The translations under genes and the position numbers were made by a program. From Gracilibacillus salinarum (GTDB lineage Bacteria; Bacillota; Bacilli; Bacillales; Amphibacillaceae): a stretch of 64,000 nt of DNA. The notes under the pieces were generated by a model. That model saw nothing but the letters and a program-made list of their open reading frames with translations, ran no database searches and was not told where the DNA came from. The stretch lies in assembly GCF_022919575.1 (NCBI RefSeq), contig NZ_CP095071.1:1922001-1986000 (forward strand), read 5' to 3'. Shown piece by piece: positions 6,191-40,147 of the stretch. Position 1 is the stretch's first letter, and each line of letters starts with the position of its first letter.

Positions 6191-6215
6191 TTTTAATTCA
6201 CTCCATTCATTAAAT

Positions 6216-7994: not shown

Positions 7995-8016
7995 TTGAGG
8001 AATCACCTCCCTATTA

Positions 8017-8051
8017 GAAAAGCTACTATTTCAAAGAGATAGTAGCTTTTC
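8017..8051 (-). terminator. Hairpin between cysNC and the permease, terminator or attenuator
   Basis: A 13-bp perfect stem, GAAAAGCTACTAT with its complement, and a short loop. The T-rich side falls at the 3' end on the minus strand, though the following U-tract is short. It lies after the cysNC stop and leaves only about 20 bases before the permease start, too little for a separate promoter. Confidence 0.65.
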
Positions 8052-8057
8052 AACTAA

Positions 8058-9884: not shown

Positions 9885-9885
9885 T

Positions 9886-10785: not shown

Positions 10786-10959
10786 ACTTTTTCTCCTTTT
10801 CACAACTATTAATTAAATTAAAATACATACAATTACTCAAAAATTATTATATTTTTATATATGATTTCTTTGTCTAGTGTTAAACATGGTCCACTAGGCT
10901 AACAATATCTTTCCTCTAAATAATAAACATTAGATAAACTTATCAATAAATTAAGGAGA

Positions 10960-11754: not shown

Positions 11755-11888
11755 ATTTCACCTACTCCAATCACCTTTTGCACTTTTATTATATAAGTAC
11801 AGATTAAAATTAATTATCCATCATATATACTTAGAGTTAATTCAAAATAACAAATTTTTATTATTGGAATATTTCATTAGACATATCT

Positions 11889-13184: not shown

Positions 13185-13298
13185 TTTCTCTCCTACCAAA
13201 ACAAAATAATAGAAATAGTTCTTTGAGACTATAACCATAAAGTATTTAAACCGTTTTTCACCAACTACTTATGCTTTTCAATGTATTTAATATTTACA

Positions 13299-14201: not shown

Positions 14202-14297
14202 AATAGACCTCCGCATTCAATATTAGCTTATTCATTATGCTTAATTTGACACATAGTGATGAAGTAGTTTTATACTTTTTCAACAGACTCTTTTTCG

Positions 14298-22143: not shown

Positions 22144-23973
22144 TTATTTCGCTACTCCTACCCTCTTGATTCGCTCCGCATATACGATCCTCATTAAATG
22201 ATCCTTCAATTGCTCTTTATCGTGTTCTGTAAAATGACTAATTAAATCCCACAATTGATTTTCTTCAACATTGACTGTTTTGCCAACATAAATTTTTTCA
22301 TATATCGCTTCCGGATGAACTTCATTTTCTCCAAGTAATTCTTCATACATTTTCTCGCCTGGTCGGATTCCGGAATAGCTTATTATAATTTCGTTTTCTG
22401 TATAACCTGAAAGCTTAATCAAATTCTTAGCCAAATCAACAATCTTAACAGGCTCACCCATGTCCAGCACAAAAATCTCTCCACCATGAGCTAAAGTCCC
22501 CGCCTGAATCACAAGCCTAGAAGCTTCCGGTATCGTCATAAAATACCTAGTCATCTCAGGATGGGTCACTGTAACCGGCCCACCCTGTTCAATCTGTTTC
22601 TTAAACAAGGGAATAACACTGCCACGACTTCCAAGCACATTACCGAATCGTACAGCAACAAATTTCGTTTTACTTGTCTTAGCAAGAGTTTGTACGATCA
22701 TCTCTGCCACACGCTTCGTTGCGCCCATCACATTGGTCGGATTAACAGATTTATCTGTAGAAACTAAAACAAAAGTATGAATGCCGAAAGCATCTGCCGC
22801 ATCCGCTACGTTCTTCGTACCAATGATATTGTTCTTGACTGCTTCGTGTGGGTTGTATTCCATTAACGGAACATGTTTGTGTGCTGCTGCATGATAGATA
22901 ATTCTCGGATTATGCTCCTGGACAATTTCGAATATTCGTTCACGGTCTTGTACATCTGCAATAATAGGTATAATTTCAATAGCTGTATCTTTGTATTTAT
23001 TTCGCAGTTCCATGTCAATCGAATAAATACTAAACTCACCGTGTCCGACTAATAGAATTTTTCTCGGAGTAAATCGCATTAACTGCCTGCAAATTTCAGA
23101 GCCGATTGAACCTCCGGCCCCTGTTACCATCACGGTATTATCAGTGACATATTCTGAAATCGAATTGATATCTAATTCGACAGGCTCTCTACCAAGCACA
23201 TCTTCCACATCAACATTCTTCAAAGAACTAACTGAAATTTTGCCGGAGACAATATCCTCTATCTTCGGTACCATTTGTACTCGTTTATTCGTACTGTTAC
23301 AAATAGTAACCAGTTCAGATAAAGCACCATTCGTTAATGACGGAATCGCGATGACAATGTGATCAATTTCTAGTTCACTTACGATATCAGGAATTTCTTT
23401 CGTGTGTCCTGCAACCGGAATATCGTATAATTGCATTTTATGCTTGGCCATATCGTCGTCGACAAAGGCTACTGGTAATAGATCGTTATGATGCTGTTCA
23501 TTCTTTAATTGCCTTGCAATCATCGCACCTGCTGACCCTGCACCGACAATTAATGTTCGTTGTTTATTCTTCTTATCATGCATGAAACGGTCCCGGTAGA
23601 CTCTCCAGACAAACCGCGAGCCGCCGATAAGCATTATATGTAATAACCATGTGACAATAAGTGCTCGTTTATAAATCGTAAAATCATTAAATAAGAACTG
23701 AACAATTCCTGTTGCTACAATCGTAAATGTGATCGCTTTTACAATAGCAATTAATTCTCCCACACTCGCATATGCCCATACCTTGTGATACAGCTTGTAG
23801 ATAAAGGCGAACAAGTGATGGAAGAGAAGCAGCGCGATTGATGATACTGCCACTACTTCTGCCTTCTGCAAGGAATAATTCGGATAAACAACCCAGGAAG
23901 CGATAAAAATGGCAGTACTTACGATGATTGAATCTAATAAAACTAATAATAATATCCGTTGCTTATAACCCAT
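22144..23973 (-). CDS. CapD/PglF-type nucleotide-sugar 4,6-dehydratase
   Basis: A 609-residue membrane-bound SDR protein. Four N-terminal membrane helices (residues 8-115) are followed by a first Rossmann-like domain (VGAGSAGAMIARQL). The catalytic dehydratase domain has MVTGAGGSIGSEICRQ near residue 285 and STDKSVNPTNVMGATKR. As usual in this subfamily, Met replaces Tyr in the YxxxK motif. The product would be a UDP-4-keto-6-deoxy-N-acetylhexosamine, the parent of sugars such as bacillosamine or FucNAc. It sits between galU and the deacetylase and so probably supplies the first, modified sugar of the EPS. Confidence 0.93.
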   Translation of the reverse strand: MGYKQRILLLVLLDSIIVSTAIFIASWVVYPNYSLQKAEVVAVSSIALLLFHHLFAFIYKLYHKVWAYASVGELIAIVKAITFTIVATGIVQFLFNDFTIYKRALIVTWLLHIMLIGGSRFVWRVYRDRFMHDKKNKQRTLIVGAGSAGAMIARQLKNEQHHNDLLPVAFVDDDMAKHKMQLYDIPVAGHTKEIPDIVSELEIDHIVIAIPSLTNGALSELVTICNSTNKRVQMVPKIEDIVSGKISVSSLKNVDVEDVLGREPVELDINSISEYVTDNTVMVTGAGGSIGSEICRQLMRFTPRKILLVGHGEFSIYSIDMELRNKYKDTAIEIIPIIADVQDRERIFEIVQEHNPRIIYHAAAHKHVPLMEYNPHEAVKNNIIGTKNVADAADAFGIHTFVLVSTDKSVNPTNVMGATKRVAEMIVQTLAKTSKTKFVAVRFGNVLGSRGSVIPLFKKQIEQGGPVTVTHPEMTRYFMTIPEASRLVIQAGTLAHGGEIFVLDMGEPVKIVDLAKNLIKLSGYTENEIIISYSGIRPGEKMYEELLGENEVHPEAIYEKIYVGKTVNVEENQLWDLISHFTEHDKEQLKDHLMRIVYAERIKRVGVAK

Positions 23974-23997
23974 CAGTAGATCCCTTCCATCTCATTA

Positions 23998-24879
23998 TTA
24001 TTGTCTTACTTCGAATTCACTTGCCAGCTGATCAACAAACTTCCGTACATCAGGACCGATTTCCTCATTCTGAATGGCAAATTCAATCGTCGTTTTGATA
24101 AAACCTAGCTTTTCACCAACATCAAAGCGTTTTCCTTCAAAATCATAAGCAAATACACTTTGAGTCTGATTTAACTGCTGAATCGCATCGGTTAATTGTA
24201 TTTCACCGCCAGCACCGATCTCTTTTTGCTCTAAATAGTTAAAGATTTTTGGTGAAAGTACATATCGTCCCATAATTGCTAGGTTCGATGGTGCCGTTCC
24301 TTTATCTGGCTTTTCAACAAATTGTCTTACCGAATAGCTGTTACCATCCTGTTGATCAGGATCTACTATGCCATATCTGTGTGTCTCGTTCTCGGGTACT
24401 TGCTGGACCCCAATAATCGAACCGCCCGTGCGTTCATATTCATCGATCAATTGTTCCAGGCAAGGTTTATCTGATTGGACAATATCGTCACCAAGTAATA
24501 CCGCAAATGGCTCATTTCCAATAAATTTGCGTGCACACCATACGGCATGTCCAAGTCCCAGCGGTTCTTTTTGTCGAATATAGTGAATATCCACACTGGC
24601 AGGTTGTTTTGCTTTTTCCAGCAGTTCTAACTTACCTTTTTTCAATAAGTTATCTTCTAATTCAAAGTTATTATCAAAATGATCCTCAATGGCCCGTTTT
24701 CCTTTTCCCGTCACGATAATAATATCTTCTATTCCTGATGCAATCGCTTCTTCAATTATGTATTGGATCGTTGGTTTATCTACGATTGGCAACATTTCCT
24801 TTGGCATTGCCTTCGTTGCCGGTAAGAATCTTGTTCCTAATCCCGCTGCAGGAATAATTGCTTTTCTTACTTTTTCCAC
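23998..24879 (-). CDS. galU: UTP-glucose-1-phosphate uridylyltransferase
   Basis: A full-length GalU of 293 residues that makes UDP-glucose from UTP and glucose 1-phosphate. The N-terminal loop [19 protein letters not shown] binds the nucleotide. [25 protein letters not shown] and [13 protein letters not shown] are all present. The start is GTG at 24879, preceded by GGAGGATGATCC. UDP-glucose feeds the EPS and, through the dehydrogenase at 46354, UDP-glucuronate. It is the intact counterpart of the interrupted copy at 3321-4199; the two differ throughout, so the duplication is not very recent. Confidence 0.95.
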
Positions 24880-24962
24880 GGATCATCATCCTCCATTGTC
24901 TTTTCAAACATATATTTGAAATACACGATAAACATTATATCGAAAAGGTTAGGACTTAACAA

Positions 24963-25739
24963 CTAGAAAATTCCTAAAATTTTTCTTTTTTTAATTCTTT
25001 CGGGAACATCACCAATAACGTTTTCTCCATTGACTAAATATTGCGAATTTTCCATTAGCCAAAAAAGCGTCTCTGTACCGAATTCATCCTTAATCACACT
25101 ATGCGCTTCCTGCATCACAAATCCTCTGGTTGTGACATTATGAGCATCTGTTGCGATGAAATGTGTGAGATTTGCCTCGACTAATTGCAGGCTTAATTTC
25201 TTAATTTTCTTACCGAATTTTCCAGCGATGCTTGCAGCGGTAAGCTGCGTTAACGTGCCATTACTCACTAAATCGTATAAAATATTAGGGTTTTCCATTA
25301 TTTCTTTATTGCGTTCGGGATGGACAATGATTGGCTTGATTCCTTGCAGTTGCAGATCAAACATCAATTGCGTTGTATAACGCGGAACATGGTTGGATGG
25401 TAGTTCCACGAATAAATAGCCACTTGATTCATTAAGTGGTAACAGATGTCCTGCTTCTAAATCGGTTAACATTTCTCCATTTATCCGTGTTTCCTGGCCG
25501 GGTAGAATTGTTAGAGGTACTGCTTCGTCTTGTAATCTATTGTTCAATTGATCTACTGCTGTAATAATATCATCTTTGTAGTTATCATAGCTGCCATTTA
25601 AGTGATGAGGCGTCGCAATTATCGTGGTAATTCCTTGCGATACGGCACTTTTCGCCATTTGCACACTTTCTTCGGTATGTTTCGCACCATCATCAATTCC
25701 AGGCAAGATATGACAATGAATGTCGATCATTCGATTCAT
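24963..25739 (-). CDS. Tyrosine-protein phosphatase, CpsB/YwqE family
   Basis: A 258-residue PHP-superfamily manganese-dependent phosphatase that removes phosphate from the bacterial tyrosine kinase (YwqD) controlling polysaccharide synthesis. The metal ligands are in place: IDIHCHILPGIDDGAKH at the N-terminus, PGQETRI near residue 90, VHPERN near residue 140 and ATDAHN near residue 197. The start is ATG at 25739 after GGAAGG. A degenerate paralogue lies just upstream. Between that paralogue and YwqD is a terminator-like hairpin, so kinase and phosphatase need not be expressed together. Confidence 0.93.
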   Translation of the reverse strand: MNRMIDIHCHILPGIDDGAKHTEESVQMAKSAVSQGITTIIATPHHLNGSYDNYKDDIITAVDQLNNRLQDEAVPLTILPGQETRINGEMLTDLEAGHLLPLNESSGYLFVELPSNHVPRYTTQLMFDLQLQGIKPIIVHPERNKEIMENPNILYDLVSNGTLTQLTAASIAGKFGKKIKKLSLQLVEANLTHFIATDAHNVTTRGFVMQEAHSVIKDEFGTETLFWLMENSQYLVNGENVIGDVPERIKKRKILGIF

Positions 25740-25898
25740 CGCATCCTTCCTTATCTAAATTCATATTTCTTATGCCACACTGTCATATTAGGATAAGTAT
25801 AGCAGTATTGGAAAGAAATTAAAATAGGAGAAATTAGACGAGTTTTGTCGAACATCATTAATTTATGTAAAATGTTTGCTAATTCCTCCATTTTTATG

Positions 25899-26660
25899 CT
25901 AAATAATGCCAAAAATTTTCTTTTTCTTAATGCGTACAGGCTCCTCACCTTGTACTATTTTACCTTCCATTAATAGAGTCATATTCTCTTGAAGCAGGTA
26001 AAGCTGTTCTAACGATACCGTCTTCTTTAATGTATTCCAGGCAGATTGTAAATAGAATTGTTTCGGATCTGCGGTATCCGAGCTGATAAAATGAGCAAGA
26101 TTATGTTTTACTAATTGTTGCGCTGTTTTTTGTATTTTTTTGCCTTTCTTACCGACAATACTTCTGGCGCTCACTTGAACCAGCGCACCATTCTTCACCA
26201 GGCTGTACAGCATATTAATATCCTCTTGAATGTCCAGATTTTTCTCAGGGTGGACAAGCACTGGTTTATACCCTTTTAATTGAAGTTCATAACAGAGCTG
26301 TTTCGTATATTGTGGTATATGATCAAACATGAACTCTATGAAAATATATGCTGGATCATTCCCATAGGTGATCAGTTTGCCTTTCTCTAAATCTTCTTCC
26401 AGATTACCGTAAATGCGAATGGTTTGGCCAGGGAGAATCTCTACGTTTATTCGTTCCTGACTTAGTTGTTGATTTAACGTATTGATGTAGCTTATGATGG
26501 ATTCTTTATTAATTTCCTGTTTTCCTTGTATATATCTCGGTGCAGCAATAATATATTTCACGCCAGCCTTCTCTGCTTCCTTTGCCATTTGAAGAGCAGA
26601 CAGCTTATCCTTTACGCTATCTTGATTGATTGGAAGAATATACGGATTAATATCCAACAT
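25899..26660 (-). CDS. CpsB/YwqE-like protein lacking catalytic metal ligands (predicted pseudo-phosphatase)
   Basis: A 253-residue paralogue of the phosphatase at 24963, full length and intact as a frame. Key residues are replaced: the N-terminal HCH motif is NPY, the GIDDGAKH stretch is INQDSVKD, PGQETRI is PGQTIRI, VHPERN is VHPEKN, and ATDAHN is SSDTAD. Both N-terminal His, the Glu and the last His are lost, so metal-dependent catalysis is unlikely. Yet the core fold signature (VLVHPE, GKKIKK-like, IKKKKIFGII tail) is kept and the reading frame is open, which argues that the protein is used, perhaps to hold phospho-YwqD or to compete with the active enzyme. The start is ATG at 26660 after AAAGGATGG. 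Confidence 0.8.
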   Translation of the reverse strand: MLDINPYILPINQDSVKDKLSALQMAKEAEKAGVKYIIAAPRYIQGKQEINKESIISYINTLNQQLSQERINVEILPGQTIRIYGNLEEDLEKGKLITYGNDPAYIFIEFMFDHIPQYTKQLCYELQLKGYKPVLVHPEKNLDIQEDINMLYSLVKNGALVQVSARSIVGKKGKKIQKTAQQLVKHNLAHFISSDTADPKQFYLQSAWNTLKKTVSLEQLYLLQENMTLLMEGKIVQGEEPVRIKKKKIFGII

Positions 26661-26819
26661 TAATACCATCCTTTCTCATTACCCCTTATATTATATGAGA
26701 CTTTCGTCCTGTTCTATATAAAGAATATCATATTCGTTATAAATTGAAAAGATGAATTTCGAGATATGTATATTTTTTTACAATTCGTTCATTCATAAAG
26801 GTGATTTTGAATACTAAAA

Positions 26820-26858
26820 AAAGCCATTTAACTCTAGGATGACTAGTCAAATGGCTTT
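26820..26858 (-). terminator. Intrinsic terminator downstream of the tyrosine kinase gene
   Basis: AAAGCCATTT and AAATGGCTTT pair across a loop that itself holds a short ACT/AGT extension. On the minus strand a run of T follows (26814-26822). It lies ten bases after the kinase stop, so most ywqCD transcripts probably end here and the remainder read through into the EPS genes. Confidence 0.8.
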
Positions 26859-26868
26859 CATTCTGCTA

Positions 26869-27561
26869 TTAATTTCCGTAATAATAATAATGACCTTTTT
26901 TCTGTTCACGGTCGTTGAGGACCACTCCTAACAATTTCGCATTACCGACTTCCAGCAACTCTTTTGCCTTAATTGCTGCATCATTCTCCGTCTGGTTACT
27001 CCGTACGACCATCACCGCACCATCACATATGTTGGCAAGAATTTGGGCATCTGTAACGGCAAGAACAGGCGGGGTATCAAATAAAATCACATCATATTCT
27101 TCTTTAGCAGCCACGATCATCTTCTCCATTGCTTTCGAACCTAGTAATTCTGATGGGTTAGGCGGAATCGGGCCACAGCTCAATAGATCCAGTCCGGCGA
27201 CATCACAATTAGAAATCGATTCTAATAAGGTTGACTCTCCCACCAATACACTGCTCAATCCTCTTCTGTTATCCATTCTAAACGTGTAATGCAAGGTTGG
27301 CTTCCGCATATCCGCATCAATTAGAAGCACTTTCTTTCCTTGCTGAGCAAACACAATCGCTAAATTCGCTGTGGTAGATGACTTACCTTCCGATGGTCCT
27401 GATGAAGTAACCAGCATTGTTTGTAGATCACCGTCAACGGAAGAGAACTGTAAATTAGTCCGAATCGTTTTGTATTGCTCAGATATCGGAGAGCGTGGGT
27501 TCATTTTCGTAATTAAGTGACGAATGTTCGATACTTTAGACTGTTTTTTTCTTCTGGCCAT
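26869..27561 (-). CDS. CpsD/CapB-family tyrosine autokinase (YwqD-like)
   Basis: About 230 residues, the separate cytoplasmic kinase of the BY-kinase class. The Walker A motif SSGPSEGKSST (near residue 55) and the Walker A' VLLIDADMRKP are present, with Walker B VILFDTPPVL. The C-terminal tail ends in a KKGHYYYYGN cluster, the usual site of multiple tyrosine autophosphorylation. It is activated by the membrane partner YwqC and controls chain length or assembly of the EPS. The start is the ATG at 27561 after GAGGGGGA, giving an overlap of 26 bases with ywqC. Target proteins are not evident, but the CapD or GalU enzymes are common substrates in related systems. Confidence 0.94.
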   Translation of the reverse strand: MARRKKQSKVSNIRHLITKMNPRSPISEQYKTIRTNLQFSSVDGDLQTMLVTSSGPSEGKSSTTANLAIVFAQQGKKVLLIDADMRKPTLHYTFRMDNRRGLSSVLVGESTLLESISNCDVAGLDLLSCGPIPPNPSELLGSKAMEKMIVAAKEEYDVILFDTPPVLAVTDAQILANICDGAVMVVRSNQTENDAAIKAKELLEVGNAKLLGVVLNDREQKKGHYYYYGN

Positions 27562-28300
27562 TGAAGTTCCCCCTCTCACGCTTCTGACTGATGGATACGG
27601 ACTTCCCCATCGTCATCATATCTTTCTCGTCAATATGAGAAATGACACCAAGTACAGGTAATTCCAAAGTTTTTTCCACATCTTGCTCTGTTTTCACCGT
27701 ATTATCGAGGTATTCAAATAAGAACGCTAAGCCTACCCCGATCATAGCACCGATAACAAGTGCGATAGCTGTATTCAGCATTGGCTTCGGATTAACAGGC
27801 GTTGGATTGGCTGGGACAACCGCTTCTGATAAGACACTCACATTGTTGACATTCATTAATTCAGGTAAGTCTTCCTGAAAGATCGCGACAGTAGTATTGG
27901 CAATCTCTGCTGCCAGTTCAGGATCGGAATCGGTTGCGGATAGCTTCACTACCTGAGAACTCTCCGAATTCGCTACCGATATTTTCTCACTTAATGCGCC
28001 AGGTGAAATCGCCAAATTCAATTCTTCTATAACTTGATCCAAAATTCGATTACTCGTGATGATATCATTATATGTATTAATTATTTCCAAGTTAGATCTA
28101 ATTTGATTTATATCGACACTTTGTGCTTCACTTGTATCCTGGTTAACAATAAATTGCGTACTAGATTGATAGGTTGGCGTTAAGACAAAATAACTAATAA
28201 TTGCTGCTGCACCTGCCGCTCCAATCATTAACAATAGAATCAGCAAAAGGCGTTTCTTCAATACTTCAAAAATCTCTTTCAGTGATATCGTTTCCTCCAT
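27536..28300 (-). CDS. Wzz/CpsC-family chain-length determinant and kinase activator (YwqC-like)
   Basis: A 254-residue membrane protein with the topology of Wzz proteins: a cytoplasmic start (EETISLKEIFEVLKKRL), a membrane helix at residues 17-38, a long extracellular coil, and a second helix at about residues 180-203. PANPTPVNPKPMLN before the second helix is the conserved proline-rich Wzz signature. The cytoplasmic C-terminal tail activates the YwqD-type kinase. The start is the ATG at 28300 after CGGAGG. It is the first gene of the EPS locus. Confidence 0.94.
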   Translation of the reverse strand: MEETISLKEIFEVLKKRLLLILLLMIGAAGAAAIISYFVLTPTYQSSTQFIVNQDTSEAQSVDINQIRSNLEIINTYNDIITSNRILDQVIEELNLAISPGALSEKISVANSESSQVVKLSATDSDPELAAEIANTTVAIFQEDLPELMNVNNVSVLSEAVVPANPTPVNPKPMLNTAIALVIGAMIGVGLAFLFEYLDNTVKTEQDVEKTLELPVLGVISHIDEKDMMTMGKSVSISQKRERGNFNGQKKKTV

Positions 28301-28563
28301 AGTTTAGTAACCTCCGAATGAAATGTATTTCTGTCAAATAGCATACTTAGCACATTATATTCGAAATTATAACACAATACATTTTGATATGACATAGCAA
28401 TATACCTTTTATTATGTAAAATTCATACAATTATTCTTGAATATCTTAAAAAATTCGACATTCAGCTCGTCTTTCAGCGTGTACTGTAGTTTCTTTTATT
28501 CTAACTTTTCACTACAACGAGCTTACTCATAACTAAGAGGTTATATCATCCTGCCTTGCAAAA
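28301..28563. promoter_or_regulatory. Leader and promoter region of the EPS locus
   Basis: This 263-base AT-rich stretch lies between the terminator at 28564 and the first EPS gene and must hold the locus promoter. TATAAT hexamers on the minus strand occur at 28366-28371 and 28354-28359, but neither has a good -35 at 17 bases. That would fit a promoter needing an activator such as the adjacent LuxR-type protein. A 7-bp inverted repeat (AGCTCGT at 28464 and its complement at 28517) flanks the upstream part. Site assignment is uncertain. Confidence 0.35.
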
Positions 28564-28601
28564 AAAGAAAGCCTGTGTCCCTCCTGACACAGGCTTTCTT
28601 T
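28564..28601 (-). terminator. Strong intrinsic terminator after the LuxR-type gene
   Basis: A perfect 16-bp stem, AAAGAAAGCCTGTGTC with its complement, has a six-base loop. A and T tracts lie on both sides, so it can act in either direction. It ends two bases before the regulator stop codon region, separating that gene from the EPS transcript. Confidence 0.95.
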
Positions 28602-28603
28602 TT

Positions 28604-29233
28604 TTAAGAAACGTAAAACCATTCATTCCGAAAGGCTGTAATGACTGCATTCGTCCGGTCTGGTACTTCTAATTTACGCAAGATGGAGCTAATATGATTC
28701 TTTACCGTTTTGTCTGTGATATAAAGCTTTTGACTAATACGTTGATTACTATAACCTTTTGTCAAGAGCTCCATCACTTCCCACTCGCGGTTGGTAAACA
28801 CACCAACGGGTCTTGACTCTTTACGATTATAAATCTGGCGGTAATCGCCTAGCAGAACTGGTGCAAGATCCTGGTGGATATAATGGTTACCCGCAACGAT
28901 TTTTTCAATGGCTCCAATTAATTCTTCCTTTTCCATTCCGTTAAAGAAGTAACCGTGTAAGTTCATTTTGAACAGTTCGGTTAGATTCTCATGGTGTTGA
29001 TTCTCCGTCCAGATAATAATTTTCTTGTTGTTCTCCATATATTTCTCTACAAGCGACATGGTGTCAGTCTTAGTATCAATATCAATGATTAACAAATCAA
29101 TGATATAGTCTCGTAATTTCTCTTGTTGTTTCGGTTCCACTGCGATTACATCATAATCCTTGAATTCCGTAGAAAGCACCCCTACCAAACCCTCGCGATA
29201 AATAGAAGCTTCTTTCACAATTGCAATTCGCAT
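28604..29233 (-). CDS. Orphan LuxR/NarL-type regulator with degenerate receiver domain
   Basis: A 209-residue protein. The C-terminal LuxR helix-turn-helix is intact: FTNREWEVMELLTKGYSNQRISQ, then ITDKTVKNHISSILRKLEV. The N-terminal receiver (residues 1-120) keeps the likely phospho-acceptor in LLIIDID and the Thr in IIIWTEN, but the acidic pair after strand 1 is Lys-Glu (IVKEAS) and the Lys of strand 5 is replaced (GYFFNG), so normal phosphorelay is doubtful. No histidine kinase is adjacent. The gene lies directly upstream of the EPS locus and behind a cyclic di-GMP riboswitch, so control by its amount rather than its phosphorylation is plausible. The start is ATG at 29233 after GAGGAGG. Confidence 0.9.
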   Translation of the reverse strand: MRIAIVKEASIYREGLVGVLSTEFKDYDVIAVEPKQQEKLRDYIIDLLIIDIDTKTDTMSLVEKYMENNKKIIIWTENQHHENLTELFKMNLHGYFFNGMEKEELIGAIEKIVAGNHYIHQDLAPVLLGDYRQIYNRKESRPVGVFTNREWEVMELLTKGYSNQRISQKLYITDKTVKNHISSILRKLEVPDRTNAVITAFRNEWFYVS

Positions 29234-29260
29234 GTTTTTACCTCCTCATTTTTATTCCCA

Positions 29261-29298
29261 AAAAAAATGGCTATTCCTGAAAAGAACAGAAATAGCCT
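29261..29298 (-). terminator. Riboswitch-controlled intrinsic terminator (expression platform)
   Basis: On the minus strand, GGCTATTTCTG and CAGGAATAGCC pair around a short loop and are followed by eight T residues. It lies between the c-di-GMP aptamer and the regulator start codon. A GACAAAG/CTTTTGTC hairpin between aptamer and terminator may be part of the switch. Confidence 0.88.
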
Positions 29299-29347
29299 AA
29301 AATGACAAAAGAAACTTTGTCATACACACACGTATCCGATTAGTGTT

Positions 29348-29446
29348 ATTTAGGTAACCAGGCGATCATAGGTATAAGATATGAAGATAAATACCCTTAG
29401 ACCCTAGGCTTTGCGTCCTACTCTTTCAAATAGTTTGCCTTTATCA
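29348..29446 (-). ncRNA. Cyclic di-GMP-I (GEMM) riboswitch aptamer
   Basis: The minus strand holds the class I signature in order: AAAGGCAAAC, a GAAA-type tetraloop stem (ACTATTTGAAAGAGTAGG), GACGCAAAGCCT, then GGGTCTAAGG, and after a variable stem GATCGCCTGGTTACC. The spacing and the conserved A-rich and GACGCAAAGCC blocks match the known GEMM consensus closely. It binds cyclic di-GMP, the second messenger of biofilm formation. It lies in the leader of the LuxR-type gene, 50 bases before an intrinsic terminator, so it probably acts by transcription termination. Whether the ligand turns the gene on or off cannot be read without structure calculations. Confidence 0.93.
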
Positions 29447-29468
29447 AATACTTCAATTATCTATGTCT

Positions 29469-29497
29469 ATCATACCGTTTTCCTATATTAATTGCAA
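29469..29497 (-). promoter_or_regulatory. Sigma-A-type promoter of the riboswitch and LuxR gene
   Basis: The minus strand has TTGCAA (29497-29492), a 17-base spacer, and TATGAT (29474-29469). Transcription would begin near 29462, about 15 bases before the aptamer core, the usual layout for riboswitch leaders. Confidence 0.7.
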
Positions 29498-29870
29498 TAA
29501 CCATCAAGGTATTATAGCAAAGATAAATCAAAAGACTTAAATAATTGAAGAAAAAAACCATTTTTATGAGTTTTAATACCTAACATTTTCTGTTTAAATC
29601 TGTCGAAAATAGCGGAATTTTGACATTGATAGAATAAGAGAGCTTGAGATGTTTACTTTTTTCGGCAGGTTATATAGGAAAGATAGAAGGAGGCAGATAA
29701 TAAAAATATAATTAGAAGCGATTGTAACACCATGCTCGATCACCCTTTTTGTTAGATTATTTATCTTGAATTCAATGTATTTTATTATATCGAATGATAT
29801 AGTGACATTTCAATAGCGAAACCCCTGTATTATTGTTATATTTTGGCGAATTGGATAAAATTATTCAGCT
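29498..29870. other. Intergenic region, nothing recognised
   Basis: A 373-base AT-rich stretch with no open frame having a ribosome binding site and no repeat shared with the rest of the window. An AGGAGG at about 29690 is not followed by a start codon. Confidence 0.5.
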
Positions 29871-33406: not shown

Positions 33407-36400
33407 TTATTGTCTTCTACGACGATAGAACATGAAAGTAACGGTACCACCAATCACAAAAAGAGCTCCCCATAACGTATAATTAAAAATATTTGTTGCT
33501 GTTGTAGGAAGACTAGATTGAGTCTTTTCTTCACCATTTACTTCCAATTGATTCAGCACTTCGACTTTCGTTCGTTCAGATTGTCCTAATTCTATTGTAA
33601 ATCGAATAGGTGATGGATCAAGCGTATAACCTTTAGGAGCTTTTGTTTCTGTAAAGTAATACTCTCCAGGCTTTAAATAATCAACAATAATCATACCATT
33701 TTCATCGGTGGTAAGATCTTGCGCAATAAGTTCGCCATCCTTATTTTTTAAACTGAATTCTGCCCCATGTAGGGTCTTTTCCTTATTCTTACTGTCTAAC
33801 TTTACTAATTCTACGCCTGAACGAATTTGCTTATTAGTTAATGCTATTTTTTTAGGTGCTAATTGTCCTTTATCAATTGTGAAGGATATCGGTCGATGGG
33901 AGTGATAACCTTCTAACGGCTCCGTTTCTTTTAGCAGATATTTTCCAGGACGTAAATCTTCAATTAAAAGCTTGCCATCTTCTCCTGTTACAAGATCCTC
34001 TCTTAATATGTTTCCTTCTGCATCTTGCACTTCAAACTTCACACCTGCTAAAGGTAACGATGGATTATCAAAATCTACCTTGGTTAATGCAAAATCACCT
34101 TTTACAATGGTATTATCGGTAGAGATTAATAACGTTTCACTTTGACCTAAATCAATCGTAAAGGTGAGAGGTGCTGAATCTAGCTGATAGCCATCAGGAG
34201 CTCGCGTTTCGACAAATTGATAAGTACCTGGCGTTAAGTCCTCCACTAAAAGTTTCCCATTTTCATCTGTTTTCAAATTCTCTTGTAAAACCTTTCCTTC
34301 TTGTTGAAGTTCAAAGGTCGCACCTGCTAATGTTCCACCAGTTTCTTCATCTACTTTTGTTAATTCAACTGAGCCGCTAGTCATACTGTTCTTCATTGCT
34401 AGATTCAATGTTTCTGCTTGGTTAAAATCAATTTCAAATGGTATTGGAGTGCTATCTAACTCATAACCGAAAGGCGCTTCCGTTTCTACTAGTTGATAAG
34501 AACCTGGTTTCAAATCTTCAATGATTAACTTTCCATTTTGATCAGTAGCAAGACCCATTTGCAGTGTTTCCCCTTGCTCATTTAACAATTCAAATATCGC
34601 TCCAGATAAGCCATTATCTGCTTTTCCTAACTTGGTTAGTTCAACTGATCCAGTAGATAGTGGATTCACCGCATTAACTTTTGTAACTTCTGTCTGACCA
34701 AGTGTAATAATAAATTCAATAGGATCCGCAATTAGGTCATACCCAGGTAAACCTTCTGTTTCCACAAATTGATAACTACCAGGTTTTAAATCACTAATCA
34801 ATAACTTACCACCCGCATTAGTTTCCAATCCTGTTTGCAAGGTATTCCCTTCCGCATCTTGCAGCTCAAATTCTACGCCTTCTAAATCGTTCCCGTCTTC
34901 CCCTGTCTTCGTTAATTCCACAGCTCCGGTTGATTGTTCATTTTCCATCGTTAGTTGTAACGTTTCCTGTTGATCAAACACGATTTCAAAAGGTATAGGT
35001 GTTTCATCTAATTCATGACCAAATGGTGCCTTCGTCTCTACCAGTTCGTAATGACCGGGTTTCAAATCTTCAATAAGCAGTTGACCAGTCTCATTCGTTA
35101 TTAAACCTGTTTGAAGCTCGTCCCCTGCCTCATTGCGTAACGTAAATTCAGCGCCTTCTAACCCCTCTCCTTCTTCTCCTACCTTCGTTAAGGTAACAGC
35201 TCCCGGTGTTAATGGATTTTCAAAGGAAACTTCGGTTGGTTCCGTTTGTCCTAAACCAATATCAAACTCAATTGGCGTCGCATCCAAGTCATAGCCTGCA
35301 ATGGTCTCTGTTTCGACTAATTGATAGCTACCAGGATCAAGATCAGCTATCGTTAGCTTTCCTTGCTCATCTGTCGTAAAACCTTCTTCTAGCGTTTCGC
35401 CGTCGCTATCCTGCAATTCGAAGACGACACCTTCTAATAAGCGTCCATCTTCCCCTTGTTTGGTTAACTCGAAGGTACTTGGAATATAGCTGTTTTCCAT
35501 CGTCAATTGTAATGTTTCCTGTTGATCAAACACGATTTCAAAAGGTATAGGCGTTTTATCTAATTGGTAGCCGAAGGGTGCCTTCGTCTCTACCAGTTCG
35601 TAATGACCGGGTTTCAAGTCTTCGATAAGCAGTTGACCAGTCTCATCCGTTGTTAAGTCTGTTTGAAGCTCGTCCCCTGCCTCATTGCGTAACGTAAATT
35701 CAGCGCCTTCTAACCCCTCTCCTTCTTCTCCTACCTTCGTTAAGGTAACAGCTCCCGGTGTTAATGGATTTTCAAAGGAAACTTCGGTTGGTTCTGTTTG
35801 CCCCAGTACAATGTCAAAGGAGATAGGCGTGTTATCAATGTCGTATCCTTGGATCGTGCTGGTTTCGACGAATTGATAGTTTCCTGGTTTCAACTCTTGC
35901 ACGAGTAACTTGCCATCTGCATCTGTGGTCAAATTCTCTTGAAGGGTATTCCCTTCCGCATCTTGCAGCTCAAATTCTACGCCTTCTAAAATGTTCCCGT
36001 CTTCCCCGGTCTTCGTTAATTCCACAGCTCCGGTTGATTGTTCGTTTTCCATCGTTAGTTGTAACGTTTCCTGTTGATCAAACACGATTTCAAAAGGTAT
36101 AGGTGTTTCATCTAATTCATGACCAAATGGTGCCTTCGTCTCTACCAGTTCGTAATGACCGGGTTTCAAATCTTCAATGAGCAGTTGACCAATCTCATCC
36201 GTTGTTAAACCTGTTTGAAGCTCGTCCCCTGCCTCATTGCGTAACGTAAATTCAGCGCCTTCTAACCCCTCTCCTTCTTCTCCTATTTTAAATAATTCTA
36301 CAGAACCTGTACTTAATAAATTCTCTACCTCTAATTCAACCGGAGTGTTTTGCGCAAATCCAATTTCAAATGAAATAGGATTTGTGTCTAGCTTATATCC

Positions 36401-39400
36401 ATCAAGTGTAGCCTTTTCCACAAATTGATAACTACCTGGCTTTAAACCATTTACTTTTATAACTCCGTTTTCATCTGTAAATAATCCATCCTGAAGCATT
36501 TTCCCCTCAGCATCCTGAAGTTCAAACTCTACACCTACCAGTAATAGTCCGTCTTCCCCCACTTTTTTCAGCTCCACAGAGCCTGTGGCTAGTTCGTTAA
36601 CTTTACTAATCTCAACTGGCTCTTGTTGAGCAAACTCAATGTCAAAGGGTATTGGCGTATCATCTAATTGATATCCTTCCGGTGCGCTTGTTTCTACAAA
36701 TTCATAACTTCCCGGCAATAAGTCTTCTACAACTATTATTCCTTGTTCATTAGTGGTTAGTCCAGAATCTATCTCTTGATTATCTTCATTATAAAGAGAG
36801 AATATCGCACCTTGAAGAACCTCATCATCTTCGCCTTTCTTTAATAATTGTACAGAATTATCTAAATTCATATAAACACCGACTCTAGTCGGTTCCACAG
36901 GTTGTCCTTGATCAGTCGCAATCGCAAACGAATTCCATGCTGCTCTTTCACTTGGATTAATATTTTTATCTAACACCTTAGGATCTACATCAGAAGCAGC
37001 CGGAGCTACCATGGAGAAAGAAATTGTTATGTCTTCGCCTTCTATCCATTCAACACCATCTTTTAATTCAATTTTAAAGGCATGGATAGAAGACCAATCT
37101 TCAATTTCACTAGCTAATGTCCAATCTGGTGCTTCCGCGCTATCAGGATTAGAAAGTTTCTCTGTCGTTTCTGGATAATTTGTATTCCTCGTTAAATCAT
37201 CACGTTCAGGTGTAGCAACGGAGCTGTAGTATATATCTACTCTATCCTCCCAAGATGTAGGTATTTGAATTGTCTTTACCAACGAAGGGGTAAACTGACT
37301 TCCTCGATCAATATTATCAGTGATACCTAAATCTCCAACAGATGGTAAGACATCCATTAAAGTCATACTAGAAATATCATCTCCAGTTGTATTCGTTAAC
37401 GTTAATTGATAATCAATTTCCCCACCAGGCACAGTACTCCCGAATTTGGTAAATGTATCATCTAATGCACCTCTTACTAACTTCTCTGTTTGAATATTAT
37501 ATTGACCACTCATATAATATTCATTACCAGATTTCAGTCGTGGTTGGTCATCATTTCCGTCTCCATTTAGGTCCCCTACGTCTGTTTGAAGAATGGTATC
37601 TGTTAACCCTGGATTATCTACAGTGGGAACTGTTAGTTCCTCATCTCCGGAAAAGCCATATACATCAAATTTTAAAATATTCGGAGCCCCTTCACTAATG
37701 TCCACATTGATTTCTGTGTTTATATTCTTCCCCGGACGTAAGAGTCTATCTTCCCAATGAAAGGTTATCAATTGCCGCCCTGTATCATTAAAATTATCAC
37801 TAACTATTTCATACTCACCATTTGATTCTCTTCCGTCTGAACCATAAAATAACGAATCTGGATTATCTGAGATTACAACCCCTGATGGTAACAATACTGT
37901 TGCTTCTAACGGCTCGTTCATAGCTAAGGTAGAACTATTTGATGTAGTTAAATTAACACTCATTCGATTATCTCCAAAGTCAACATAGGAACCTTGATGA
38001 TTGGTTAGCGATACATCGACTGTTGCTATTGGTGGTTGATCCGTGGGCTTGGGCACAATTTGCGCAGATCTAGGGCCTGCAATGGGATCCGTATTGTATG
38101 GCCTCCCATTTGTATTACTTCCGAAGGCTGTCCCCTCACCACCTATACCATTAATATTAAATATGTTTGTAACATCTCCAGTATATCCCTTTTCAACTCC
38201 AAAATAATAATTTGGTCTGCCATTATTAAGCATACCGCTGGGTGCGTAAGTAAAATCTAAGAATATAGCACTTACTCTGGCATTCTCGCTTATTCCTAGT
38301 TCTGATCTGGTATAAGTTGTATCAATATCTGCTTCTTGTACTAACACTTCTCTACTTCCGTCGACTATTGCTTCTATGTTGAAGACAGGATCATTAGTTA
38401 AAGGTACCCCTCCGGGATAATCAGGTCCAGGTCTATATACAAACCCTCCTGGAGTCTTCATTTCTTCAAATATTAAATGAGGATCAATATCATAACGCGT
38501 AGTATACTTGCGAAAATCTCCTTCTTTACTTTCTTGCAATGGTGCAATACCATGTGAAAATCCTAGTAAAGCGTCATCATATACGACGGGATTAGGGTTT
38601 TTATTATCAAATGGACCAATATCCCCTTTACCATTTAAAGGTCCGTGATGCCCCGGCACATAAACATTTCCCTCAATGTCGCCAGTTGCTTTCTCCGAAT
38701 CCACGATTGTTACACTGTCACTTGCACTAACACTATTTTCATTTCCCCCAATAAAAGAAGTAGTAACATCAACATTGTTTGTTAACGTTTGATCCACGGT
38801 ATTATCTTCAGCCGTTAATACCACTTCAAGATCTTTTGTGAATAATGTATCTTCCGAATTTTCTTGCTCCTCTATACTTGGAGCGTCAAATGTCCACGTT
38901 AATTGATTTCCACTCTGATCTGGTTCAGGCCCTTTAGAGGTCGAATCATAATTTAGCCCATTCGGTATAGTATCTACTACCGTAATTTTTGAGCCTTCTT
39001 CAATGTAGCTTTGCCCAATACTTTTTTTAGGGATATCAACACTAATTTTCCAAACTGTGTCCGAATTTGGAATAGGTAGATTTCGATCATTTCCTATTGC
39101 TTTGGTAAAATTTTTTGATACAGAAATCGTTGTGGAGGAATCCACTATTACTTGTGCCGAATCGTCCACTATCGCTTGTTGATCTGCTTCAAATGATGCC
39201 GTCATATTTAACTTCGTTGCATTCGGTGTTATGCCATTTGCAGTCTGCACTTTGATAATATTTTCATACGTTTGTCCAGTACTTATGCTATCAAACTCAT
39301 ATATCAACTGATTCATTTCTTCATCAAAATGAGGCTCGACGCCTGCTATTTTCAATTCAGAAAGAGCCTGATTAAATGATACTGTATCTAGTTCTGGTAA

Positions 39401-40147
39401 ATCTACTCGAATCACAGCATTCGTATATTTTGCGATTGACCCTGTCGTTTTAAATACAAATTTATAAGCAGCGTCATTTCCAGCATAAATATTAGTATTT
39501 AATGGCGATACATCAATATCCACATTTAAATTACCCGATAGAGGAGTAATAAAATTATTTGAAAGAACGTCTTGGGTTGCTTCTTCTTTGGTGGTTTCTT
39601 TGGGGTTAGCAACAGTATCATCATACTTATTGTTGATATTTTCCGAGGAATCATTGTTTGTGCTCTCTATAGTAGATGAGTCATTAGAAACGTTTTTGTC
39701 GTCAGCAGCGTTTTTGTCTAGAGAAAACGTTAAGCTTTCTTTAGCTACTAATTCATTATTTGTATATCCTTCAACTTTTATTTCGTTCTGTTCTGATAAA
39801 TTGTTCAGTACTATTTTAATAGATAAAGGTGGTGAATCGGGTACGTTATCTACTACTAACGTATGAGTATCAGGTTGATAGGTTAAAGAAAAGTCTGCTT
39901 TTGTTAATTCTTTTGTTTTTTCTTCATCCCAATCCGCATCATTAGGTAAAGTGATTTTTAAGTTGTCATATATAGTTTCTGAACCTATATCTATGATACT
40001 TTCTTTTAACGACGCACCACTCTCTAGGGTGATGGTAAACTCTTCTGTGTGATTGTTGTTACTTTCTGCAAGAATGATCGAACTAGAGTACGATAATTGA
40101 GAGAACATTATGAAAGCAATCAACAATATTGACAAGTATTTTTTCAT
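33407..40147 (-). CDS. Giant repetitive Cna-B-domain surface adhesin with sortase signal
   Basis: A 2246-residue wall-anchored protein. It has a signal peptide (residues 1-28), a Ser/Asn/Thr-rich stretch to about residue 190, and a large N-terminal region of beta-sandwich domains to about residue 1120. Then come 12 Cna-B (SpaA-like) domains of about 92 residues each, to about residue 2200. Each begins with a VELTKxGEDG-type strand carrying the Lys and contains a YxxxETxxxxGY strand carrying the Glu of an intramolecular isopeptide bond. Domains 3, 5 and 7 are nearly identical. The C-terminus is LPTTATN, a hydrophobic helix and RRRRQ: a sorting signal with Ala in place of the usual Gly, like class D sortase substrates. 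No sortase is in the window. The start is ATG at 40147 after AAAGGAGG. Confidence 0.93.
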   Translation of the reverse strand: MKKYLSILLIAFIMFSQLSYSSSIILAESNNNHTEEFTITLESGASLKESIIDIGSETIYDNLKITLPNDADWDEEKTKELTKADFSLTYQPDTHTLVVDNVPDSPPLSIKIVLNNLSEQNEIKVEGYTNNELVAKESLTFSLDKNAADDKNVSNDSSTIESTNNDSSENINNKYDDTVANPKETTKEEATQDVLSNNFITPLSGNLNVDIDVSPLNTNIYAGNDAAYKFVFKTTGSIAKYTNAVIRVDLPELDTVSFNQALSELKIAGVEPHFDEEMNQLIYEFDSISTGQTYENIIKVQTANGITPNATKLNMTASFEADQQAIVDDSAQVIVDSSTTISVSKNFTKAIGNDRNLPIPNSDTVWKISVDIPKKSIGQSYIEEGSKITVVDTIPNGLNYDSTSKGPEPDQSGNQLTWTFDAPSIEEQENSEDTLFTKDLEVVLTAEDNTVDQTLTNNVDVTTSFIGGNENSVSASDSVTIVDSEKATGDIEGNVYVPGHHGPLNGKGDIGPFDNKNPNPVVYDDALLGFSHGIAPLQESKEGDFRKYTTRYDIDPHLIFEEMKTPGGFVYRPGPDYPGGVPLTNDPVFNIEAIVDGSREVLVQEADIDTTYTRSELGISENARVSAIFLDFTYAPSGMLNNGRPNYYFGVEKGYTGDVTNIFNINGIGGEGTAFGSNTNGRPYNTDPIAGPRSAQIVPKPTDQPPIATVDVSLTNHQGSYVDFGDNRMSVNLTTSNSSTLAMNEPLEATVLLPSGVVISDNPDSLFYGSDGRESNGEYEIVSDNFNDTGRQLITFHWEDRLLRPGKNINTEINVDISEGAPNILKFDVYGFSGDEELTVPTVDNPGLTDTILQTDVGDLNGDGNDDQPRLKSGNEYYMSGQYNIQTEKLVRGALDDTFTKFGSTVPGGEIDYQLTLTNTTGDDISSMTLMDVLPSVGDLGITDNIDRGSQFTPSLVKTIQIPTSWEDRVDIYYSSVATPERDDLTRNTNYPETTEKLSNPDSAEAPDWTLASEIEDWSSIHAFKIELKDGVEWIEGEDITISFSMVAPAASDVDPKVLDKNINPSERAAWNSFAIATDQGQPVEPTRVGVYMNLDNSVQLLKKGEDDEVLQGAIFSLYNEDNQEIDSGLTTNEQGIIVVEDLLPGSYEFVETSAPEGYQLDDTPIPFDIEFAQQEPVEISKVNELATGSVELKKVGEDGLLLVGVEFELQDAEGKMLQDGLFTDENGVIKVNGLKPGSYQFVEKATLDGYKLDTNPISFEIGFAQNTPVELEVENLLSTGSVELFKIGEEGEGLEGAEFTLRNEAGDELQTGLTTDEIGQLLIEDLKPGHYELVETKAPFGHELDETPIPFEIVFDQQETLQLTMENEQSTGAVELTKTGEDGNILEGVEFELQDAEGNTLQENLTTDADGKLLVQELKPGNYQFVETSTIQGYDIDNTPISFDIVLGQTEPTEVSFENPLTPGAVTLTKVGEEGEGLEGAEFTLRNEAGDELQTDLTTDETGQLLIEDLKPGHYELVETKAPFGYQLDKTPIPFEIVFDQQETLQLTMENSYIPSTFELTKQGEDGRLLEGVVFELQDSDGETLEEGFTTDEQGKLTIADLDPGSYQLVETETIAGYDLDATPIEFDIGLGQTEPTEVSFENPLTPGAVTLTKVGEEGEGLEGAEFTLRNEAGDELQTGLITNETGQLLIEDLKPGHYELVETKAPFGHELDETPIPFEIVFDQQETLQLTMENEQSTGAVELTKTGEDGNDLEGVEFELQDAEGNTLQTGLETNAGGKLLISDLKPGSYQFVETEGLPGYDLIADPIEFIITLGQTEVTKVNAVNPLSTGSVELTKLGKADNGLSGAIFELLNEQGETLQMGLATDQNGKLIIEDLKPGSYQLVETEAPFGYELDSTPIPFEIDFNQAETLNLAMKNSMTSGSVELTKVDEETGGTLAGATFELQQEGKVLQENLKTDENGKLLVEDLTPGTYQFVETRAPDGYQLDSAPLTFTIDLGQSETLLISTDNTIVKGDFALTKVDFDNPSLPLAGVKFEVQDAEGNILREDLVTGEDGKLLIEDLRPGKYLLKETEPLEGYHSHRPISFTIDKGQLAPKKIALTNKQIRSGVELVKLDSKNKEKTLHGAEFSLKNKDGELIAQDLTTDENGMIIVDYLKPGEYYFTETKAPKGYTLDPSPIRFTIELGQSERTKVEVLNQLEVNGEEKTQSSLPTTATNIFNYTLWGALFVIGGTVTFMFYRRRRQ
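34840..36300 (-). repeat. 552-bp higher-order tandem repeat inside the adhesin gene
   Basis: The motif GCGTAACG occurs at 35135, 35687 and 36239, exactly 552 bases apart, embedded in long near-identical blocks. 552 bases is two 92-residue Cna-B domains, so the gene has grown by duplication of a two-domain unit. The intervening domains (4, 6, 8) diverge more than domains 3, 5 and 7; a block near 34850 recurs near 35958, 1104 bases away. Copy number probably varies between strains. Confidence 0.9.

What the first reader, a model, noticed from the sequence alone, without database searches (positions are those of the whole stretch)
29261..29497. Cyclic di-GMP-I riboswitch with terminator in front of the EPS-adjacent regulator
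The minus strand carries the full class I consensus (AAAGGCAAAC, GACGCAAAGCC, GGGTCTAA, GATCGCCTGGTTACC), a well-spaced promoter (TTGCAA, 17 bases, TATGAT) and an intrinsic terminator before a LuxR-type gene next to a 25-kb EPS locus. This would link the biofilm second messenger to matrix synthesis through a transcription factor rather than through the EPS genes themselves.
Basis: seen in the sequence. Interest (0 to 1): 0.88.

Follow-up and report, generated by a model that had tools for sequence, protein, structure and literature searches.

The report
c-di-GMP riboswitch before EPS-neighbour regulator
A messenger-sensing RNA switch, probably turned off by the biofilm signal c-di-GMP, sits in front of a regulator gene beside a slime-polysaccharide gene cluster in a probably salt-loving soil bacterium and its relatives; the switch type is well known, but this wiring looks new.

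Summary
Window 29350-29449 (-) is a c-di-GMP-I aptamer (RF01051, 80.2 bits, E 3.7e-14) between a conserved promoter and a terminator, before a 209-aa LuxR/GerE regulator (REG) adjoining a wzz/tyrosine-kinase EPS operon. Genus inferred: Gracilibacillus. Comparison adds three things. (1) Sign: the strand starting at the ligand-contacting C (C92 of Vc2) is complementary to the base of the terminator's 5' arm. In 22 leaders, four pairs not fixed by the anchoring form in 68/88 cells, at most 50/88 when slid (permuted mean 51.5), with T-A to A-T exchange. Ligand and antiterminator would compete for one strand, so I predict an OFF switch; in the window the antiterminator is thermodynamically weak. 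(2) REG's receiver is degenerate; its level may be its main input. (3) The pairing is old: aptamer before REG in 21 of 38 homologues examined, 13 of 14 in the EPS-adjacent clade; half of the rest have chemotaxis/motility relatives nearby. Not shown: ligand response, or REG acting on EPS. The EPS operon has its own promoter, and four congeners have wzz without REG. New member of a known class; new wiring.

The parts
29469..29497 (-). sigma-A-type promoter TTGCAA-17-TATGAT of the riboswitch-REG transcript
   Evidence: 17-bp spacing with >=9/12 matches in 11 of 23 leaders
29350..29449 (-). c-di-GMP-I riboswitch aptamer
   Evidence: RF01051 80.2 bits, E 3.7e-14, full model
29354..29354 (-). C equivalent to ligand-contacting C92 of Vc2 (model position 83), also first base of the antiterminator strand
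   Evidence: alignment; Vc2 contacts G20/A47/C92 from passages of PMC4744006; assignment of position 83 to C92 is mine
29349..29354 (-). antiterminator 5' strand CCTAAA
   Evidence: pairs with 29296-29301
29296..29301 (-). antiterminator 3' strand TTTAGG, overlapping the GG at the base of the terminator 5' arm
29302..29323 (-). spacer hairpin ATGACAAA...TTTGTCAT between the two antiterminator strands
   Evidence: seen in sequence; part of the fold
29260..29297 (-). intrinsic terminator: 11-bp stem GGCTATTTCTG/CAGGAATAGCC, then A and T8
   Evidence: hairpin with T-rich tail in 23 of 23 leaders
29241..29246 (-). ribosome binding site AGGAGG
   Evidence: seen in sequence
28604..29233 (-). REG: 209-aa LuxR/GerE regulator with degenerate (pseudo-)receiver
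   Evidence: PF00196 68.9 bits, no receiver hit at E<=1e-3; alignment A1
28566..28600 (-). terminator after REG (AAAGCCTGTGTC/GACACAGGCTTT + T-run)
   Evidence: seen in sequence; by eye the same GCCTGTG/GTCTGTG-type hairpin in 8 of the 12 REG-wzz intergenic regions printed
28366..28395 (-). EPS operon promoter ATGTCA-18-TATAAT with TG extension
   Evidence: TGNTATAMT upstream of wzz in 16 of 16 genomes aligned
22144..28300 (-). first genes of the EPS operon: wzz, tyrosine autokinase, two CpsB/CapC phosphatases, galU, PglF-like dehydratase

Best explanation
It is a c-di-GMP-I riboswitch acting by transcription attenuation as an OFF switch on REG. At low c-di-GMP the nascent strand CCTAAA (starting at the C92 equivalent) pairs with TTTAGG, which overlaps the base of the terminator 5' arm; this delays the terminator and REG is made. 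At high c-di-GMP the ligand holds C92, the antiterminator cannot start, the 11-bp terminator forms and REG falls. REG is a LuxR-type DNA-binding protein with a degenerate receiver, so its amount, set by the riboswitch, may be its main input. Because of its conserved position before the separately promoted EPS operon, and because many family members elsewhere lie near motility/chemosensory genes, the most likely (inferred) role is a low-c-di-GMP regulator that restrains EPS and/or favours motility, so that c-di-GMP relieves the EPS genes by silencing REG. Shown by computation: aptamer, terminator, antiterminator complementarity with covariation, conserved linkage. Inferred: ligand response, direction, REG's targets and sign.
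For: Aptamer 80.2 bits. Hairpin plus T-rich tail after the aptamer in 23 of 23 distinct leaders. Pairing of N94-N97 (after C92-C93) with the bases before the terminator GG: 68/88 in 22 leaders; 49/88 and 50/88 at slides -1 and +1, 43/88 or less beyond; in 12 one-per-lineage leaders 38/48 against at most 27/48. Permuted partners: mean 51.5, maximum 65 of 88 in 20000 trials. (With C92-C93 included it is 112/132 against 72/132, but those 44 pairs are fixed by anchoring on CC and GGC.) Position 94 is T-A in 12 leaders and A-T in 7. RNAduplex energies of 12 leaders native against species-swapped: -99.2 against mean -69.6, 1 swap in 20000 as good. Window antiterminator probability 0.63 (0.83 with P2/P3 imposed) when the transcript ends after the terminator 5' arm. 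Ligand contacts G20/A47/C92 (PMC4744006 passages); seven functional C. difficile class I switches are OFF by termination (PMC6366702 passages). Own genome has 11 GGDEF and 6 EAL matches. Aptamer upstream of REG in 21 of 38 rows, 13 of 14 in the EPS clade. G008, the EPS-clade member without aptamer, keeps promoter and hairpin but not the U-run.
Against: The window antiterminator is weak: the full-length RNA is terminator with probability 1.00 in each of the three states modelled; without imposed aptamer its probability falls from 0.63 to 0.31 and 0.11 as the terminator loop and first 3'-arm bases are added; its advantage before the terminator completes is 0.3-1.4 kcal/mol. So the switch must be kinetic. 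In truncated folds the antiterminator exceeds 0.5 in 15 of 23 leaders, is 0.33-0.37 in L006 and L008 and 0.04 or less in L009, L069, L068, L129, L015, L017 (anchors of L015 and L017 are poor). In L069 and L070 the full-length fold does not favour the terminator (0.01, 0.30). A ligand-stabilised P1 was not supported (native -35.9 against swapped mean -39.5, p 0.75). Leaders are related (five of the seven A-T rows are one genus), so the permutation figures are optimistic and exchanges may be only one or two events. Bc2 is an ON class I switch (PMC4933901); Bc1 binds ligand without regulating (PMC11218506 abstract). No REG binding site was identified; wzz exists without REG in G005, G014, G010, G007.
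Confidence: 0.6

Rival explanations
1. Same riboswitch, but ON: c-di-GMP promotes read-through, so REG rises with c-di-GMP and activates EPS, as in the textbook order c-di-GMP -> matrix activator (VpsT-like output).
For: Bc2 of B. thuringiensis is an ON class I switch using termination (PMC4933901 passages). REG has sub-cut-off similarity to CsgD (76 bits, cut-off 250) and similarity to VpsT (54 bits), both matrix regulators. An ON switch would match high c-di-GMP = more EPS directly.
Against: The terminator stem (29269-29297) shares no base with the aptamer; the covarying alternative helix uses the ligand-contacting C and competes with the terminator base, which gives OFF. I saw no further helix that would invert this in the folds, but made no exhaustive search for one.
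Confidence: 0.17
2. Correct riboswitch and OFF, but REG does not act on EPS; its targets are motility/chemosensory or other genes, and adjacency to EPS is passenger linkage.
For: Of 24 homologues outside the EPS clade 12 have a MotAB, Che or MCP relative within the 20-kb stretch fetched. EPS operon has its own promoter, conserved also without REG.
Against: REG-wzz adjacency is kept in 13 of 14 rows of the EPS clade over three genera while genes further downstream in the EPS locus differ; the 14th is cut by a contig end.
Confidence: 0.3
3. Aptamer binds c-di-GMP but gives little or no regulation, like Bc1.
For: Window terminator far outweighs the antiterminator thermodynamically; Bc1 is a precedent (PMC11218506 abstract).
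Against: Antiterminator complementarity is maintained with compensatory change in many lineages, which a dead switch would not keep; G008, which lost the aptamer, also lacks the terminator U-run.
Confidence: 0.12
4. Chance resemblance, not a riboswitch.
For: None found.
Against: E 3.7e-14, full model, ligand-contact positions present, conserved in the same place in other species.
Confidence: 0.01

Closest known systems
Cd1 class I riboswitch before the flgB operon, Clostridioides difficile
   Same: c-di-GMP-I riboswitch; OFF, with c-di-GMP raising the terminated product (PMC4744006, PMC6366702 passages)
   Different: Controls flagellar genes directly; here a transcription regulator beside EPS genes
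Bc1 and Bc2 riboswitches, Bacillus thuringiensis
   Same: Class I aptamer plus terminator(s) in Bacilli
   Different: Bc2 is ON and controls an adhesin; Bc1 has two terminators and does not regulate. Here the covarying antiterminator predicts OFF
c-di-GMP riboswitch before sinI, Bacillus methanolicus (annotation)
   Same: Putative c-di-GMP riboswitch on a biofilm regulator instead of a structural gene (PMC4342826 passages)
   Different: SinI is an antirepressor, not a LuxR protein. The present genome has a SinI version as well
VpsT / CsgD (LuxR-type matrix regulators)
   Same: LuxR output domain, matrix-linked; weak sequence similarity
   Different: VpsT binds c-di-GMP as a protein (PMC3359988 passages); [WY][FLM][TS]R, the VpsT/CsgD motif as I recall it, is absent from all 38 REG rows, two of them partial; here the sensor is in the mRNA

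Membership tests
c-di-GMP-I riboswitch (RF01051) | Covariance-model match above the gathering score over the full model | tested here: met
   80.2 bits against 35, model 1-87
c-di-GMP-I riboswitch (RF01051) | Ligand contacts equivalent to G20, A47, C92 | tested here: met
   GGCAAAC, GACGCAAAG and GGTTACC aligned without gaps to the model; contact numbers from PMC4744006 passages; mapping is mine
c-di-GMP-I riboswitch (RF01051) | GNRA tetraloop and tetraloop receptor (type I) | tested here: met
   GAAA loop; CTAAGG...CCTATG matches the model; that this is the receptor is recalled
c-di-GMP-I riboswitch (RF01051) | Binds c-di-GMP | not testable with these tools
   needs in-line probing or ITC
Terminator-type expression platform, OFF logic | Intrinsic terminator downstream, not overlapping the aptamer | tested here: met
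   29269-29297; hairpin and T-rich tail in 23 of 23 leaders
Terminator-type expression platform, OFF logic | Antiterminator mutually exclusive with both ligand-bound aptamer and terminator | tested here: inconclusive
   Comparative complementarity, register control and covariation for it; weak in the window fold and absent from several leaders' folds
Terminator-type expression platform, OFF logic | Ligand-dependent termination | not testable with these tools
   needs in vitro transcription
NarL/FixJ-type phosphorylated response regulator | GerE/LuxR HTH | tested here: met
   PF00196 68.9 bits
NarL/FixJ-type phosphorylated response regulator | Functional receiver (acidic pair, Asp, Thr/Ser, Lys; recalled) | tested here: not met
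   No Pfam receiver hit; K7-E8 in place of the acidic pair and N in place of Lys, Asp51 and Thr76 kept. G044 has K at the lysine position
VpsT-type c-di-GMP-binding LuxR regulator | [WY][FLM][TS]R c-di-GMP motif (motif recalled) | tested here: not met
   absent in 38 of 38 rows, G001 and G006 being partial pieces

The most novel reading that the evidence does not exclude
A Bacillaceae family of kinase-independent LuxR regulators takes its signal from c-di-GMP through its own mRNA: the riboswitch replaces the phospho-receiver, or the c-di-GMP-binding receiver of VpsT. Associated elsewhere with motility/chemosensory (MotAB-Che-MCP-EAL) clusters, it was captured next to a sulfated-EPS operon in the Gracilibacillus lineage, so that one OFF switch converts high c-di-GMP into loss of a matrix repressor.
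Probability: 0.33. Interest if true: 0.68.

Novelty: new member of a known kind. Interest (0 to 1): 0.5.

Why it matters
[quoted passage not shown] If right, this is a route in which the second messenger is read by RNA and passed on by a response-regulator-like protein with no apparent kinase input, and it may link the motility and matrix ends of the c-di-GMP switch through one regulator family. The same genome carries its two other detected c-di-GMP-I aptamers before a SinI-like antirepressor and a diguanylate cyclase, so all three found sit on biofilm or c-di-GMP control genes. The antiterminator gives a definite testable sign (OFF).

Tried and rejected
ON switch: considered and ranked second; no inverting helix seen (not an exhaustive search). 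Conserved P1 helix: tested by swapping strands between species, not supported (p 0.75). REG-specific operator at the wzz promoter: aligned 16 genomes and read by eye; conserved blocks are the extended -10 and a TTATGGTGTG-like start region, the latter also in REG-less G005, so no operator is claimed; no motif-finding program was run. REG and EPS as one operon: rejected, own terminator and own promoter. REG as a VpsT-like c-di-GMP-binding protein: motif absent. Global MFE folds of whole leaders were uninformative because terminator and flanking pairings dominate.

Rows dropped before counts: L128 (identical to L068 over the stretch compared) from the leaders, 24 to 23; L015 from the ungapped test (its terminator has no GGC), 23 to 22; L131 and L139, whose aptamers lie about 800 nt upstream or downstream of REG, were not used as leaders. 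The 12 one-per-lineage leaders were my choice. The tree used one REG per fetched stretch, though G067, G068, G071, G095 and G096 have more than one match. The 37 stretches come from 34 genomes: 33 of the 60 with a homologue at E<=1e-38, plus G044 of another family of the order; with the window's genome 34 of 60. The aptamer regex recovered 13 of 13 Rfam hits tried but missed 2 of 3 Rfam hits in L117, so its counts are lower bounds; 20 of the 21 positive rows are also Rfam hits, G127 is regex only. c-di-GMP-I aptamers are common in these genomes: 55 of 61 have one.

Full report
WHAT IS THERE. A scan of the whole window against Rfam at gathering threshold returns one match: a c-di-GMP-I aptamer (RF01051) at 29449-29350 on the minus strand, 80.2 bits, E 3.7e-14, full model. 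A promoter TTGCAA-17-TATGAT lies at 29497-29469 and an 11-bp terminator followed by A and eight T at 29297-29260. Consensus scans alone give no clear excess over shuffles. But a promoter with 17-bp spacing and at least 9 of 12 matches lies in the 60 nt before the aptamer in 11 of 23 orthologous or homologous leaders, and a hairpin with a T-rich tail follows it in 23 of 23 (best-scoring hairpin taken, no shuffle control, weak in L070, L017 and L069).

ORGANISM AND NEIGHBOURHOOD. The window lies in a 4.8-Mb single-contig genome. The genus is therefore inferred, not given; 'Bacillaceae' for the wider group is my label. Downstream of the riboswitch: REG (28604-29233; GerE domain only), a terminator, then wzz, a tyrosine autokinase, two CpsB/CapC phosphatases, galU and a PglF-like dehydratase, followed by glycosyltransferases, a Wzy-like protein, a flippase, a sulfotransferase and sulfate-activation genes, i.e. 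a probably sulfated exopolysaccharide.

THE EXPRESSION PLATFORM. I collected 24 leaders in which Rfam finds a c-di-GMP-I or c-di-GMP-I-GGC aptamer directly before a REG homologue; one pair is identical, leaving 23. In the window CCTAAA (29354-29349) begins with the residue aligned to C92 of Vc2, one of the three ligand contacts (G20, A47, C92; PMC4744006, passages read). It is complementary to TTTAGG (29301-29296), whose GG is the base of the terminator 5' arm. For a test I anchored 22 leaders on CC and on the GGC of the terminator arm (L015 has no GGC and was dropped). The two C-G pairs are then fixed by construction; the next four positions, N94-N97, pair in 68 of 88 cells. Sliding the partner by one base gives 49 and 50, and 43 or fewer beyond; in 12 one-per-lineage leaders it is 38 of 48 against at most 27. 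Dealing the partner strands among species gives a mean of 51.5 and a maximum of 65 in 20000 trials. Position 94 is T-A in 12 leaders (the EPS clade) and A-T in 7, five of them one genus. These tests ignore relatedness, so they are optimistic; the exchange may represent only one or two events.

WHAT THIS MEANS MECHANISTICALLY. The ligand needs C92; the antiterminator starts at C92; the antiterminator and the terminator share GG. Hence ligand bound -> no antiterminator -> terminator -> REG off. Folding the window RNA supports competition only kinetically. With the transcript ended at the terminator 5' arm the antiterminator has probability 0.63 (0.83 with P2/P3 imposed); without imposed aptamer it falls to 0.31 and 0.11 as the loop and the first 3'-arm bases are added; in the full-length RNA the terminator is certain in each state modelled. 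Across leaders the truncated-fold probability exceeds 0.5 in 15 of 23, the window being 0.72 with a longer 5' flank; L006 and L008 have 0.33-0.37, and L009, L069, L068, L129, L015 and L017 0.04 or less. In L069 and L070 the full-length fold does not favour the terminator. A species-specific P1 helix was not supported. OFF is also the behaviour of the seven functional class I switches of C. difficile, while B. thuringiensis Bc2 is ON and Bc1 binds without regulating (passages or abstract of PMC6366702, PMC4933901, PMC11218506).

THE REGULATOR. In the window protein the receiver part keeps Asp51 and Thr76 but has K7-E8 where response regulators have an acidic pair, and N at the conserved lysine; K7 and D51 are 90% or more conserved among 24 aligned homologues, and G044 is an exception in having K at the lysine position. 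The canonical receiver residues are recalled. Pfam finds no receiver at E<=1e-3. NCBIfam matches (NarL, MadR, CsgD) are far below the families' cut-offs, and PDB matches are to NarL, VraR, VpsT and others. The c-di-GMP motif of VpsT as I recall it, [WY][FLM][TS]R, is absent in 38 of 38 rows, two of them partial. A regulator that probably cannot be phosphorylated in the usual way would be set mainly by its level, which fits riboswitch control; this is inference.

HISTORY. Of 159 genomes of the family searched, 60 have a REG homologue at E<=1e-38. I fetched stretches for 34 of these 60 (the window's included) plus G044 from another family. In a tree of 38 rows the EPS-adjacent rows (12 Gracilibacillus, plus G148 and G026 from two other genera) group together (support 83/84; deeper forks partly open). 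An aptamer lies within 500 nt upstream in 13 of these 14 and in 8 of the other 24, 21 of 38 in all (regex, a lower bound; 20 of the 21 also by Rfam). REG is adjacent to wzz in 13 of the 14; in G001 the contig ends. G031, outside the clade, has wzz 8.7 kb away. Of the 24 rows outside the clade 12 have an MCP, MotA/MotB or Che relative within the stretch (a loose label; G070 has only an MCP 8.8 kb away), 2 more a GGDEF-EAL relative, and the remaining 9 besides G031 none of these; 11 of the 24 have further aptamers nearby. The fullest case is aptamer-REG-MotA-MotB-aptamer-CheX-CheA-CheW-CheY-MCP in G132 and G127. In G008 (83% complete) no aptamer is found; promoter and hairpin remain but the U-run is gone.

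DOES REG ACT ON EPS? For: conserved adjacency. Against or open: REG ends in its own terminator, and wzz has its own extended -10 promoter, conserved in 16 of 16 genomes aligned including G005, G014, G010 and G007, which lack REG at E<=1e-38. So REG is not needed for the locus to exist, and no operator was identified. My preferred sign (REG as EPS restrainer, pro-motility) follows from OFF logic plus the usual c-di-GMP order and the motility context of some relatives; it is the least certain step.

PRIOR WORK. Nine searches of the held library (listings seen, two of them cut short: 12 of 16 and 10 of 37 papers; passages or abstracts of six papers read) turned up no description of this REG family or of a Gracilibacillus riboswitch; most subscription papers are not held. 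A putative c-di-GMP riboswitch before sinI is annotated in B. methanolicus (PMC4342826, passages), so riboswitch control of biofilm regulators in Bacilli is not new as an idea.

VERDICT. A real, conserved c-di-GMP-I riboswitch with a comparative case for OFF control of a pseudo-receiver LuxR regulator next to EPS genes. Riboswitch: known kind. Wiring and regulator family: apparently undescribed, moderately surprising, readily testable.

Noticed in passing
L003 1500-1586 (-), G000:C1:902215-902301: A c-di-GMP-I-GGC aptamer (RF03167, 65.8 bits) lies directly before a 44-aa ORF matching Pfam SinI (39.9 bits, cut-off 31.4), with an RBS close behind the aptamer and, by eye, no intrinsic terminator in between: probable translational control of a SinR antirepressor. 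A sinI riboswitch is annotated in B. methanolicus.
   Followed up: partly
L001 1501-1587 (-), G000:C1:1156937-1157023: c-di-GMP-I aptamer plus terminator before a GGDEF protein; by eye GGTT and CC of the aptamer end can pair with AACC and GG at the terminator arm, suggesting negative feedback on a diguanylate cyclase.
   Followed up: partly
window 5399-14216 (-): Sulfation genes inside the EPS locus: sulfotransferase, GTPase/APS kinase (CysN-like), PAPS-reductase-domain protein (CysD-like), anion transporter, inositol-phosphatase-family protein: probably a sulfated exopolysaccharide.
   Followed up: no
window 33407-40147 (-): 2246-aa surface protein with a pAdhesive domain and 12 SpaA-type stretches, upstream of the catalase and riboswitch.
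   Followed up: no
L172 1600-13400, L164 9000-19900, L176 8900-19900: Clusters with c-di-GMP aptamers (regex) before MotAB and before CheX-CheA-CheW-CheY-MCP-EAL genes, REG homologue included; looks like a c-di-GMP-riboswitch-controlled chemosensory/stator system (CheY and the small EAL protein not seen in L172).
   Followed up: partly
L013 / L115 (G008): REG leader without aptamer and without terminator U-run that keeps promoter and hairpin: apparently a natural loss of the switch.
   Followed up: yes
L069 3501-4131 and L070 3501-4131: REG is split over two reading frames in the G. halotolerans and G. boraciitolerans assemblies; real decay or draft error not resolved.
   Followed up: no
window 29653-29733 (-): 26-aa hydrophobic ORF behind a promoter-like site (29813-29784, 11 of 12 matches) between catalase and riboswitch (read by eye).
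   Followed up: no
L007 upstream of REG: In G. massiliensis about 200 nt of extra sequence lies between the riboswitch terminator and REG.
   Followed up: no
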